Of a stretch of DNA of 64,000 nucleotides, positions 9,222-26,899 are shown piece by piece. Below the pieces are notes generated by a model. That model was not told the DNA's origin. It was given only the letters and a program-made list of their open reading frames with translations, and made no database searches. Source of the DNA: Anaerolineae bacterium (GTDB lineage: Bacteria > Chloroflexota > Anaerolineae > SpSt-600); the NCBI GenBank assembly GCA_025062375.1, contig JANXAG010000002.1:66101-130100 (forward strand), read 5' to 3'. The position numbers were made by a program, and so were the translations under genes. Positions within the stretch are counted from its first letter, which is position 1, and each line of letters opens with the position of its first letter.

Positions 9222-9250
9222 TTGACTCTGGAAAATGAGTGTGCTATAAT
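9222..9250 (+). promoter_or_regulatory. Strong predicted promoter of the aminotransferase leader
   Basis: TTGACT (9222-9227), exactly 17 bp, TATAAT (9245-9250). Transcription should start near 9257, leaving a leader of about 148 nt before the ATG at 9405. That leader contains a short ORF and an intrinsic terminator. Confidence 0.75.
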
Positions 9251-9298
9251 GGTATTTGCCGTAAGCAAAGGAGCTTGATAAAAAAGGTGCAATTTGAG

Positions 9299-9361
9299 AT
9301 GATTTCGGGTATGGGGCTACTTATAGGGCTTATAAATCGTGAGCAAGCGAACCGCCTGTAG
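9299..9361 (+). CDS. Possible 20-residue leader peptide in the aminotransferase leader
   Basis: An ATG at 9299 opens 20 codons ending with TAG at 9359-9361. AAGGTG lies 9 bp before the ATG. The centre of the peptide reads GLLIGLI, so 7 of 20 residues are Leu or Ile, several using CTA and ATA codons. The stop codon straddles the end of the 5' arm of the downstream terminator stem (9351-9360). This geometry fits translation-dependent attenuation, but so short an ORF could occur by chance. No homologue can be checked from here. Confidence 0.35.
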   Translation: MISGMGLLIGLINREQANRL

Positions 9362-9386
9362 CACATTACAGGCGGTTTTTAATTTT
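9350..9386 (+). terminator. Intrinsic terminator / attenuator in the aminotransferase leader
   Basis: ACCGCCTGTA (9351-9360) and TACAGGCGGT (9367-9376) form a perfect 10-bp stem around the loop GCACAT. It extends by one more A-T pair (9350/9377), and the tract after the stem reads TTTTAATTTT. The hairpin ends only about 15 bp before the ribosome site AAGGAGG of the aminotransferase, so it lies between promoter and gene. It probably acts as an attenuator. GCTAC at 9316-9320 could pair with GTAGC at 9358-9362 as a weak competing structure. Confidence 0.75.
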
Positions 9387-9404
9387 CTTAAGGAGGAGCG
9401 AGAG

Positions 9405-10655
9405 ATGGAGGTTGATATTTTAACCGAAATCAGGGCGCCAATATCGGTTTTTGATGGGCGGTACACAACCAATTGGGAAGAAGCTTTCGCTTCTCGAACC
9501 CACAAAATGGCCAGCTCAATAATTAGAGAGCTTCTCAAATTTACTGTCCACCCCGATGTTATATCCTTTGCTGGGGGGCTGCCCGCTCCCGAGCTTTTCC
9601 CTATAAGAGAGGTGAGAGAAGCTTGCGAATACGTTTTAGCCCATTACGGTCCCGCATCTCTCCAATATGGCCCTACCGAAGGGCATCCAGAGCTGCGCCG
9701 CCTTCTGGCAGAAAAAATGCAAAAATATGGGGTCCCTGCTGAAGAGGAGAATATCCTCATAACCACAGGCTCCCAGCAAGCCCTTGACTTGGTGGGCAAA
9801 GTTTTCATAGACCCAGGAGATTACATTTTGACCAGTGAACCCACTTACGTGGGCGCAATCCAGGCTTGGAGCGCTTACGGAGCCCGGTTTCTGACGGCCC
9901 CCATGGACGATGAAGGTATAATCGTGGAGCATATGGAGAAGTTGCTGCAGAAATACAAGGTTAAGTTCATCTACGTTCTCCCCAACTTCCACAACCCTGC
10001 AGGAGTTACCATAAGCGAGGAGCGAAGGTACAAAATCATAGAGCTGGCAGCCCGCCATGGCACTTTTATCGTGGAGGATGACCCTTATGGGGAGCTGCGC
10101 TTTGAAGGAAGAGATCTTGTGCCCTTGATCACTCTCCATAAGGAAAACGTTATCTACCTCTGCACTTTATCCAAAACCCTGGCTCCAGGCCTCAGGATTG
10201 GATGGGTTACAGCCCCCAGTCGGGTCATAAACAAGCTGGTTCTGGCCAAGCAGGGTGCAGACCTCCACACCGCCACTTTCCCACAGTTTGTCGCGGCCGA
10301 TATCCTGGGGCGAGGGCTTCTCAAGGAACACGTCCGCAAAATCCGCAGGGTTTACAAGGAGAGGAGAGATGTAATGATTCAGGCTATGGAGGAATTTTTC
10401 CCCGAAGGCGTTACCTGGACCAGACCCGAAGGTGGGCTCTTCCTGTGGGTCACCATGCCTGAAAAGGTAGACTCTGAGAAATTGCTGGAAAAAGCCAAGG
10501 AGGAAAGGGTGGCCTTCGTCCCGGGCTTCGCTTTCTATCCCAACGGTGGAGGGCGCAACTGCATGCGCCTGAATTTCTCCAACCAGCCTCCGGAGAGAAT
10601 TCGGGAGGGAATAAGGCGTCTGGCTAACGCCATCAAGGCGGAGCTTGAAGAGTAA
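9405..10655 (+). CDS. PLP-dependent aminotransferase, class I/II (LysN/ARO8-like)
   Basis: Cytoplasmic fold-type I aminotransferase of 416 residues. It shows GGLPAPELFP near the N-terminus, the substrate-loop SLQYGPTEGHPELR, NFHNPAGVT, and the Schiff-base lysine within LCTLSKTLAPGLRIGW. This sub-family includes 2-aminoadipate aminotransferase and enzymes with broad activity on branched or aromatic amino acids. ATG 9405 was chosen because AAGGAGGAGCGAG precedes it; the longer reading frame from 9339 would run through the terminator hairpin. A 12-residue lead precedes the conserved region. Expression is probably controlled by the leader described separately. Confidence 0.9.
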   Translation: MEVDILTEIRAPISVFDGRYTTNWEEAFASRTHKMASSIIRELLKFTVHPDVISFAGGLPAPELFPIREVREACEYVLAHYGPASLQYGPTEGHPELRRLLAEKMQKYGVPAEEENILITTGSQQALDLVGKVFIDPGDYILTSEPTYVGAIQAWSAYGARFLTAPMDDEGIIVEHMEKLLQKYKVKFIYVLPNFHNPAGVTISEERRYKIIELAARHGTFIVEDDPYGELRFEGRDLVPLITLHKENVIYLCTLSKTLAPGLRIGWVTAPSRVINKLVLAKQGADLHTATFPQFVAADILGRGLLKEHVRKIRRVYKERRDVMIQAMEEFFPEGVTWTRPEGGLFLWVTMPEKVDSEKLLEKAKEERVAFVPGFAFYPNGGGRNCMRLNFSNQPPERIREGIRRLANAIKAELEE

Positions 10656-10660
10656 GGCTT

Positions 10661-10694
10661 AAAAGGGGGTGGGTCTTCAGGCTCACCCCCTTTT
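10661..10694. terminator. Bidirectional terminator between aminotransferase and Memo-AMMECR1 gene
   Basis: AAAAGGGGGTG (10661-10671) pairs with CACCCCCTTTT (10684-10694) over 11 bp around a 12-nt loop. T-rich tracts are present in both directions. It lies between convergent genes and overlaps the last codon of the minus-strand gene. Confidence 0.8.
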
Positions 10695-24287: not shown

Positions 24288-26899
24288 AAGAAAATTTCAC
24301 CCCAATGCTCAAACAATACCGCCAGCTCAAAGCCCTCTACCCTGACGCTATCCTCCTCTTCCGTCTGGGTGATTTCTACGAAATGTTTGACGAGGACGCC
24401 AAAATCGCCTCCCGGGAACTGGAGCTCGTCCTCACCTCTCGGCGCTTTTCCAAGACTGTAAAGCTTCCCATGTGCGGGATCCCCTACCACCAGCTTACCA
24501 CTTACATCGGCAAACTCATAGAGAAGGGCTACAAAATCGCCATAGCCGAACAGATGGAACAACCGGGCAAAGGCAAGCGCCTGGTAAGAAGGGAAATAGT
24601 CCGGGTTATAACCCCGGGGACGGTGGTGGAAGAAGGGCTCCTGCCCGATAAGGAAGAGAATTTCCTGGCGGCTATCCTCCGCGGAGATGAAGGATATGGC
24701 CTAGCTTTCATGGAACTTTCCACCGGGGATTTCTCAGCCACCCAGGTTGAGGGAGGAAACCCCTTAGAAACTCTCCTGGAGGAACTGGAACGCCTCCGCC
24801 CAAGCGAGTATGTGCTCCCGCCTCACCTCGTTTCCAATGAAGCCTTTGTCTCCCGCCTCCTGAACATCCGGAAGGCCCGCATTTCCCCCCACAGAGAGGA
24901 GGCCTTCTCCCTTCCTTCTGCTCAGGAAATCCTCTTTTCCCACCTCGCTTCAATCCCCCAGGAACTGAAAGTTTTGCCCCTTGCCCTCAGAGCGGCTGGC
25001 GCCTTGCTCTGCTACCTCAAGGAGAACCAGCTTTCGGATCTGGAACACATAAGGGCTATCAGGGTTTACAACCTTTCCACCTACATGAACCTGGATGCCG
25101 TCACTTGCCGCAACCTGGAACTCCTGAGAACCCTGCGGGAAGGAGAAACCCAGGGCTCTCTATTCTGGGTTCTGGATCACACCTGCACGGCCATGGGTGC
25201 CAGACTCCTCAAACGCTGGATAACCAAACCCCTCTTGGACCCCGAAGCGATAAGGGCAAGGCTTGATGCCGTTGAGAATCTCGCCCAGGATCACCTCCTG
25301 CGTTCCGACCTGCGAGCTCTCTTGGATGGCCTCTACGATGTGGAGAGACTGGTGGGAAGGATAGGTTTTGGGAGCGCTAACGCCAGAGATCTTGTGGGCC
25401 TGAGGCGCTCTCTGGAGAGGATACCACCGATAAAAGAAACTTTGAGCCGTGCTCAAGCCCCTTTACTTCAGCAACTGAACCATGCTCTTGACCCACTTCA
25501 GGATGTAGCCCACCTCATCCGCAACGCCCTGGTAGACAACCCACCAGTTCTGGTCAGGGAAGGGGGGCTCATTCGCCCTGGATACAGCAGAGAACTGGAC
25601 TCTCTGCGCCGGGAGGTAGCTTCAGGCAGGGCCTGGCTGGCAGAGTATGAAGCCAGGGAAAGGGAGAGGACTGGCATCAAAAACCTCCGGATCCGATACA
25701 ACGAAGTCTTTGGCTTCTTCATCGAGGTAACCAGAAGTTACCTCCACCTGGTCCCGCCCCACTACGAGCGGAAGGCCACCATCTCAGGAGCCGAGCGCTT
25801 CATCACCCCGGAGCTTAAGGCCAAAGAAAGTGAAATACTGGCAGCCCAGGATAAAGCCAGAGAGCTGGAATACGAGCTCTTCATCAGGCTCAGGAGGGAG
25901 GTAGCCTCTCGGATGGATCGCCTCCAGCAGGCAGGCCGGATCTTAGCTCAACTGGATGTCCTGTGCTCTCTGGCGGAAGCTGCAGCTCGCTACGGATACA
26001 CAAAACCCACTGTGGACGAAAGCCTGGTCATAAGCATAAAAGAAGGGCGTCACCCCGTAGTGGAGAGGATGATGCCCGAAGGAGAGCTTTTTGTCCCCAA
26101 CGATGTTTCCCTGGGGGGTGATGGAGAGAGGCTTCTTGTAATAACCGGGCCTAACATGAGCGGTAAAAGCGTCTACGTCCGCCAGGTGGCCCTTATTACC
26201 CTCATGGCTCAAATGGGAAGTTTCGTCCCGGCCAAAGAAGCCCACATAGGCCTTGTGGACAGGATCTTCACCCGCATCGGCGCAACGGACGAAATTGCCA
26301 AGGGGCGCTCCACCTTCCTGGTAGAAATGGGAGAAACTGCTCACATCCTCCACAATGCTACCCCCAGAAGCCTCATAATTCTGGACGAAGTCGGCCGGGG
26401 CACCAGCACCTACGATGGGATGAGCATAGCCTGGGCTGTAGCTGAATACATTCACAATCGTATAAAAGCCCGCACCCTTTTCGCCACCCATTACCATGAA
26501 CTTACAGAACTTGAGGAACACCTTGAGGGAGTCAAGAACTACAGCCTGGCTGTGGCCGAAGAAGGAGGAAAGATCATCTTCTTAAGGCGTGTAGTTCGGG
26601 GTGGAGCGGGCAAGAGCTATGGCATCCAAGTAGCAAAACTGGCCGGCCTGCCCGAGGAAGTGACGGAAAGGGCGAGGGAGATCCTGGAAAAGGCGGAGAA
26701 AGGCTACACACCCCAGCCTCTGACCTTCCGGGAAATAGCTCCTGAACCTGATAGCTTCCTCCTGCCGGCCAATGACAAAGCGGTTTGGGATGTGGTGAGA
26801 GAAATCTTCAGGGTGGACATTGCTAACATTACCCCCATCCAGGCTCTTGTCCTCCTTAACGAGCTCCAGAGAAAGCTCAAAGGAGATCTGGGACGGTAA
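24284..26899 (+). CDS. mutS: DNA mismatch repair protein MutS
   Basis: Recognises mismatches and recruits MutL. The N-terminal domain has the mismatch-wedge motif RLGDFYEMF (F-x-E). It is followed by the connector, the lever/clamp domains and the ATPase. The Walker A motif GPNMSGKSVY is at about residue 621 and Walker B is LIILDEVGRGTSTYDG; the helix-turn-helix dimerisation end follows. At 871 residues it is a normal MutS1. Its ATG overlaps the upstream flavoprotein stop (ATGA). The last 23 bp overlap the convergent murI. No mutL is in the window. Confidence 0.97.

What the first reader, a model, noticed from the sequence alone, without database searches (positions are those of the whole stretch)
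9257..9405. Leu/Ile-rich leader ORF ending inside a terminator before an aminotransferase
A strong promoter leads to a 148-nt leader with a 20-codon ORF. Its centre is GLLIGLI (CTA, CTT, ATA codons) and its stop lies at the end of the 5' arm of a perfect 10-bp terminator stem. Efficient translation to the stop would mask the stem and allow read-through, while stalling would not. This is the reverse of the usual trp/ilv logic, or the mechanism may differ. The gene is an LysN/ARO8-type aminotransferase that may act on branched-chain substrates.
Basis: partly seen in the sequence, partly recalled or inferred. Interest (0 to 1): 0.62.

Follow-up and report, generated by a model that had tools for sequence, protein, structure and literature searches.

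The report
Branched-chain leader peptide overlapping a terminator
In a small group of uncultured Anaerolineae bacteria, a gene for an amino-acid-processing enzyme is preceded by a tiny gene rich in leucine and isoleucine codons that runs into a transcription stop signal, so the enzyme is probably made when these amino acids are plentiful rather than scarce, the reverse of the textbook attenuator.

Summary
A strong extended -10 promoter leads to a leader ORF (ATG 9299, TAG 9359-9361, MISGMGLLIGLINREQANRL*) that ends inside the 5' arm of an 11-bp intrinsic terminator, 27 nt before an aminotransferase ATG. All three held genomes of the order keep promoter, Leu/Ile/Val-rich leader ORF and terminator. 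The leader peptides have diverged, and one stem pair changed on both sides. About 40 more distant orthologs lack it. A scan of about 96% of the genome found no other leader ORF ending inside a terminator stem.

Geometry: a ribosome stalled at the Leu/Ile/Val codons leaves the terminator intact; only one past them blocks it. No convincing antiterminator was found. The same genomes carry a classical attenuator with a Pro-rich leader before proS, an internal control. They lack ilvC, ilvD, ilvE-type and leuA genes but hold several 2-oxoacid:ferredoxin oxidoreductases, which fits catabolism.

Best reading: fluent translation of the branched-chain codons lets the ribosome cover the terminator stem and licenses read-through (pyrL-like masking, amino-acid codons as sensor). 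This is inferred, not shown. Main doubts: only three genomes, untested ribosome-polymerase coupling in a short leader, unproven substrate.

The parts
9222..9250 (+). promoter TTGACT-17-TATAAT with extended -10 (TG)
   Evidence: the TATAAT and most of the -35 are kept in L031 and L032
9263..9276 (+). small hairpin AAGC-AAAGGA-GCTT near the 5' end of the transcript, role unknown
   Evidence: AAGCAA.GG.GCT invariant in all three genomes
9284..9289 (+). probable ribosome binding site AAGGTG of the leader ORF, 9 nt before the ATG
   Evidence: sequence
9299..9361 (+). leader ORF, 20 codons, MISGMGLLIGLINREQANRL*
   Evidence: counterparts MVGLLIVLIDLKSEQEGRL* (L031) and MVDFYLYPIFISILIVVLIIIP* (L032)
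9317..9334 (+). control-codon run CTA CTT ATA GGG CTT ATA (Leu Leu Ile Gly Leu Ile); CTA is only 3.8% of Leu codons in this genome
9350..9360 (+). terminator 5' arm AACCGCCTGTA, coding for the last leader codons and overlapping the stop codon
9367..9377 (+). terminator 3' arm TACAGGCGGTT
   Evidence: A-U to G-C change on both sides at the base of the stem between G000 and G001/G002
9376..9386 (+). U-rich tract of the terminator
9390..9398 (+). ribosome binding site AAGGAGGAG of the aminotransferase
9405..10655 (+). fold-type I aminotransferase, LysN / KAT-II / multi-substrate aminotransferase type, 416 aa, transcribed alone
10661..10694 (+). inverted repeat with T-run after the gene (its own terminator)
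   Evidence: sequence

Best explanation
This is a transcription attenuator whose default state is termination and whose read-through is licensed by translation. RNA polymerase starts just after 9250 and makes the leader; a ribosome starts at 9299. If Leu- and Ile-tRNAs are well charged, the ribosome crosses CTA CTT ATA GGG CTT ATA and reaches the codons and the stop that form the 5' arm of the terminator (9350-9360). Its footprint keeps the arm from pairing, so polymerase reads into the aminotransferase gene. If branched-chain aminoacyl-tRNAs are scarce, or translation fails, the ribosome lags at 9317-9334, the stem forms behind the polymerase and transcription ends near 9380-9387. The enzyme is then made when branched-chain amino acids are abundant, as suits a catabolic transaminase in an organism without branched-chain biosynthesis. 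Shown by sequence and comparison: promoter, ORF, overlap, terminator, conservation in three genomes, absence of ilvC, ilvD, leuA and ilvE-type genes over cut-off. Inferred: that the ORF is translated, that the ribosome keeps up with polymerase, the direction of regulation, and the enzyme's substrate.
For: Arrangement kept in all three genomes held for the order, with in-frame indels, strong peptide divergence but retained Leu/Ile/Val richness (shuffle P 0.18, 0.002, 0.011), and a two-sided change in one stem pair. Only 27 nt (G000) or about 23 nt (G001) separate terminator and gene start, leaving little room for a second promoter. Folding with a ribosome mask: ribosomes at the branched-chain codons of the run leave 10-11 of 11 (G000) or all 10 (G001, G002) core pairs; from a few codons before the stem none form in G000 and G001, and at the stop 7 of 10 remain in G002 with the base open. 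Stop-to-stem-start distance is -10, -13 and +5 nt, against +19, +21, +45 in E. coli thrL, leuL, trpL, +16 to +38 in the organisms' own proS leaders, and -44 in pyrL. Published E. coli data: a stop codon 5 bp before a terminator cuts termination from about 90% to under 10%, and termination is maximal only beyond 27 nt (PMC4824070); stalling upstream of the pyrL terminator increases termination (PMC5021804). No ilvC, ilvD, Aminotran_4 or leuA over cut-off in any of the three genomes, while the control genomes ring. Several 2-oxoacid:ferredoxin oxidoreductases are present.
Against: Only three genomes, two of them close relatives. In G002 the ORF stops 5 nt before the extended stem (11 nt before its G-C core), so masking there is partial. 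The antiterminator test does not separate all cases: E. coli leuL and trpL score z -1.3 and -1.4, not far from G002 at -1.1. PMC4824070 also notes that a ribosome rarely catches polymerase within the first 100 nt unless polymerase pauses, and no pause site was identified. The enzyme's substrate is unknown, and orthologs in other Anaerolineae do without the leader.
Confidence: 0.52

Rival explanations
1. Classical starvation-relieved attenuation: a ribosome stalled at Leu/Ile codons frees a segment that pairs with the terminator 5' arm, so the gene is switched on when branched-chain amino acids are scarce.
For: Leu/Ile/Val-rich leader plus terminator is the usual ilv/leu signature. In truncated RNA the 5' arm can pair with nearby upstream bases (G000 GTG.GCA.GCG with CGC.TGT..CAC; G001 GCAGG with CCTGT).
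Against: The pairings are not better than with shuffled upstream sequence (P 0.15-0.28; 0.22-0.28), are weak against the terminator (energy ratio 0.40-0.63), and differ between species; the best duplex in G000 includes the control codons themselves, which a stalled ribosome would cover. The same three genomes have a clear classical attenuator at proS with 2:3 duplexes of -27 to -30 kcal/mol. The leader stop lies in or next to the stem, not 16-45 nt before it.
Confidence: 0.15
2. Nascent-peptide arrest: high free leucine or isoleucine makes the leader peptide stall the ribosome at its stop codon, which sits in the stem and blocks the terminator, comparable to TnaC with tryptophan for a catabolic operon.
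For: The stop codon sits in the 5' arm in G000 and G001; the logic (amino acid present, catabolic gene on) is that of tnaC.
Against: Apart from RL*, which is dictated by the stem, the C-terminal residues are hardly conserved, and G002 has an unrelated C-terminus and a displaced stop. TnaC relies on conserved residues spread through the peptide (PMC10941005 abstract).
Confidence: 0.1
3. The terminator is a real attenuator, but its control lies elsewhere (an RNA-binding protein, the conserved 5' hairpin, a small molecule) and the ORF is incidental or only sets basal read-through.
For: A conserved hairpin AAGCAAAGGRGCTT sits at the 5' end of all three transcripts; the window ORF's branched-chain content alone is not significant.
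Against: No Rfam family matches the leader above its gathering score; a Leu/Ile/Val-rich ORF recurs with different sequence in G001 and G002.
Confidence: 0.18

Closest known systems
pyrL / pyrBI attenuator of E. coli
   Same: The leader ORF runs into the terminator and a close-following ribosome prevents the hairpin; no antiterminator is needed.
   Different: pyrL senses UTP through polymerase pausing and ends 44 nt past the stem start; here the sensor would be Leu/Ile codons and the stop lies in or just before the stem.
Classical amino-acid attenuators (trpL, thrL, leuL, ilvL; here also the proS leader of the same genomes)
   Same: Short leader ORF rich in the regulated amino acid, followed by an intrinsic terminator before the gene.
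   Different: No supported 2:3 antiterminator and the stop is not well upstream of the stem; the predicted response has the opposite sign.
TnaC / tnaCAB
   Same: Leader peptide before a catabolic gene, gene on when the amino acid is present.
   Different: tna uses a conserved arrest peptide and Rho (from general knowledge); here an intrinsic terminator and no conserved peptide.
Leucine-rich attenuator peptides of Staphylococcus and actinobacterial ilvB leaders (PMC5794164, PMC1262725)
   Same: Branched-chain codons in a leader with a terminator.
   Different: Those precede biosynthetic operons; here a single aminotransferase in organisms lacking the biosynthetic genes.

Membership tests
Classical ribosome-mediated attenuator (trp/ilv/leu type) | leader ORF enriched in codons of the sensed amino acid | tested here: met
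   Leu/Ile/Val-rich ORF in three genomes; shuffle P 0.18, 0.002, 0.011
Classical ribosome-mediated attenuator (trp/ilv/leu type) | intrinsic terminator between promoter and gene | tested here: met
Classical ribosome-mediated attenuator (trp/ilv/leu type) | antiterminator pairing of the terminator 5' arm with a segment behind the control codons | tested here: inconclusive
   No pairing better than shuffled upstream (P 0.15-0.28), but leuL and trpL also score weakly in this test; proS of the same genomes is clear
Classical ribosome-mediated attenuator (trp/ilv/leu type) | stop codon upstream of the terminator 5' arm, so that a finished ribosome leaves the terminator free | tested here: not met
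   stop inside the stem in G000 and G001, 5 nt before it in G002
pyrL-type translational masking of a terminator | leader ORF enters the terminator stem or ends within ribosome reach of it | tested here: met
   reach up to 27 nt in one E. coli system (PMC4824070)
pyrL-type translational masking of a terminator | polymerase pause that lets the ribosome catch up | not tested
   no pause assay or reliable pause predictor used
pyrL-type translational masking of a terminator | read-through depends on translation of the leader | not testable with these tools
   needs reporters or Term-seq
T-box leader | Rfam RF00230 match upstream of the gene | tested here: not met
   no match in the window leader; valS and pheS of the same genome do match
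LysN / KAT-II / multi-substrate aminotransferase | sequence similarity to solved members over nearly the full length | tested here: met
   1x0m, 3aov, 1wst, LysN 2egy with E from 1e-116 to 1e-104

The most novel reading that the evidence does not exclude
A natural amino-acid attenuator of inverted sign: branched-chain codons in a leader ORF sense charged tRNA so that abundance, not starvation, allows transcription of a catabolic aminotransferase, by the ribosome sitting directly on the terminator stem and with no antiterminator, while the same cell runs a classical starvation-relieved attenuator at proS.
Probability: 0.42. Interest if true: 0.68.

Novelty: new variant of a known kind. Interest (0 to 1): 0.54.

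Why it matters
Leader-peptide attenuation is taught as a starvation response for biosynthetic genes. A leader whose stop codon lies in the terminator turns the same parts into a feed-forward switch for a catabolic gene, without an antiterminator. It would show that the sign of attenuation can be set simply by where the stop codon lies relative to the stem, and a simple geometric scan (stop-to-stem distance) could find more such switches. Leader peptides in Chloroflexota are little described: the 2010 survey PMC2965389 knew of none outside Proteobacteria and Actinobacteria before its own Firmicutes examples, and its main text does not mention Chloroflexi.

Tried and rejected
Classical antiterminator search by truncated folding and duplex scoring against shuffles: nothing convincing; the duplex test proved only moderately discriminating, since leuL and trpL also score weakly. 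The automatic terminator finder missed E. coli ilvL and hisL, so they could not serve as controls. Rfam: no family over its gathering score; the one low-threshold match, Atu_C9 on the opposite strand, scores 19.4 against 40. More leaders among orthologs of other Anaerolineae and other phyla: none in about 40 upstream regions. Other branched-chain leaders in the genome: none in the 2.06 Mb scanned (one search was the same scan with an indexing error and gave no usable rows). Using the gene's longest ORF start (GTG 9339) was rejected because it would place the terminator inside the coding sequence while a good ribosome binding site and ATG lie at 9390-9405. Literature searches found no described natural case of this logic in the open-access library, which is not proof of absence.

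Full report
What is there. The window belongs to an Anaerolineae genome (its nearest relatives in genome contigs are Anaerolineae/Chloroflexi MAGs). At 9222-9250 lies TTGACT-17-TATAAT with a TG before the -10. The transcript would begin near 9257. An ORF from ATG 9299 to TAG 9359-9361 encodes MISGMGLLIGLINREQANRL. Its last codons form the 5' arm AACCGCCTGTA (9350-9360) of a terminator whose 3' arm is TACAGGCGGTT (9367-9377), followed by a T-rich tract. The hairpin is -17.8 kcal/mol. The aminotransferase starts at 9405 behind AAGGAGGAG and appears to be transcribed alone: the long ORFs upstream (a GlmU-like protein) and downstream lie on the other strand.

Conservation. The order holds three genomes in the collection. 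The same-genus genome (L031, enzyme 95% identical) has MVGLLIVLIDLKSEQEGRL*, stop again inside the stem. The other genus (L032, enzyme 80%) has MVDFYLYPIFISILIVVLIIIP*, stop 5 nt before the extended stem. Promoter, a small 5' hairpin and the terminator core are conserved. The base of the stem shows an A-U to G-C change on both sides. Indels between the first two leaders are multiples of three, and the CTA CTT ATA core is kept; CTA is a rare Leu codon here (3.8%). Against dinucleotide shuffles the Leu/Ile/Val count gives P 0.18, 0.0022 and 0.011, so the enrichment is carried by the relatives. About 40 more distant orthologs, from other Anaerolineae families and other phyla, show no such leader.

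Uniqueness. In 2.06 Mb of the 2.15 Mb genome, 51 terminator-like structures lie within 110 nt of a gene start that has a ribosome binding site. Apart from the window, only the proS leader looks like a leader-peptide attenuator, and only the window ORF ends inside the stem.

Geometry. With a 30-nt ribosome mask moved along each ORF, the terminator core still forms when the ribosome waits at the codons of the Leu/Ile/Val run, and fails only once the ribosome has passed it (G000 from codons 14-16, G001 from codons 14-15, G002 only partly, at the stop). The stop-to-stem-start distance is -10, -13 and +5 nt, compared with +19, +21, +45 for E. coli thrL, leuL, trpL, +16 to +38 for the proS leaders, and -44 for pyrL (E. 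coli sequences). Upstream partners for the 5' arm are no better than shuffled sequence (P 0.15-0.28). The test is imperfect, since leuL (P 0.12) and trpL (P 0.09) also score weakly.

Internal control. The same three genomes have a Pro-rich leader before prolyl-tRNA synthetase (MSRNVPLPCPIPRLYPDLRSGYAGVLLD*, MMLGFPLPCPIPRSFPAPGSG*, MWFKQINPPCPVEPSDKPDLRSG*) with textbook segments (in G000 CCAGACC / GGTCTGGG / CCCCAGACC) and 2:3 duplexes of -27 to -30 kcal/mol (P 0.025, 0.002, 0.000 when part of the loop is included). With the loop left out, as in the uniform test, the proS duplexes too are unremarkable, so the contrast rests and on the stop-to-stem distance. These organisms do use leader peptides, and the classical form looks different from the present one.

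Physiology. IlvD and class IV aminotransferases (the IlvE family) have no match in any of the three genomes; KARI (IlvC) and LeuA reach only weak matches far below the cut-offs (best 22 and 30 bits against 226 and 599), while the control genomes ring. An acetolactate-synthase-like protein in G000 is below cut-off (387 against 538 bits). G000 has six POR_N matches; of four alpha-type subunits scanned, two score over the cut-off of a general 2-oxoacid oxidoreductase model and two score best, below cut-off, with pyruvate synthase models, so their substrates are not assigned. Branched-chain biosynthesis by the usual route is therefore unlikely, and transamination as the first step of catabolism is plausible. 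Synthesis by reductive carboxylation cannot be excluded. This paragraph's conclusion is inference.

Mechanism. E. coli work shows that a stop codon 5 bp before a terminator lowers termination from about 90% to below 10%, with maximal termination only beyond 27 nt (PMC4824070), and that a translational stall before the pyrL terminator increases termination (PMC5021804). Applied here: fluent translation of the branched-chain codons gives read-through; stalling gives termination. The sign is the reverse of the classical case and suits a catabolic gene. Weak points are the short distance for coupling, partial masking in G002, and the small number of genomes.

Verdict.

Noticed in passing
L134:4780-5070 (G000:C7, before proS at 25063); L200, L201: Pro-rich leader ORF and a classical three-segment attenuator before prolyl-tRNA synthetase, conserved in the three genomes; G008 proS has another Pro-rich leader (MRGWPFVPIPPGPRSGA*), while G059 and G003 proS upstream regions carry a T-box-like GGTGGTAYCACGGGG motif, so the sensor type seems to switch between families.
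   Followed up: partly
L108:10661-10890 (+) and L154:16957-17204 (-): T-box leaders (RF00230) before valS and pheS in the same genome, so three aminoacyl-tRNA synthetase genes use two different attenuator classes.
   Followed up: no
window 9263-9276: Hairpin AAGCAAAGGRGCTT at the very 5' end of the leader transcript is conserved in all three genomes; its loop resembles a ribosome binding site. Role unknown (stability, standby site or pause).
   Followed up: no
L108:4437-4531 (-): Selenocysteine tRNA (RF01852, 74.9 bits) in this Anaerolineae genome.
   Followed up: no
L032:218-305: In G002 a second frame (TTG start) through the same region encodes MIFTYIQYLFPYLLWFSLLFLSKEGRL*, whose stop falls in the terminator stem as in the other two genomes; whether it is used is unknown.
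   Followed up: no
L154:10059-10244 (+): FMN riboswitch aptamer (RF00050) shortly before a transport permease ORF, with a terminator-like stem at 10288 between them.
   Followed up: no
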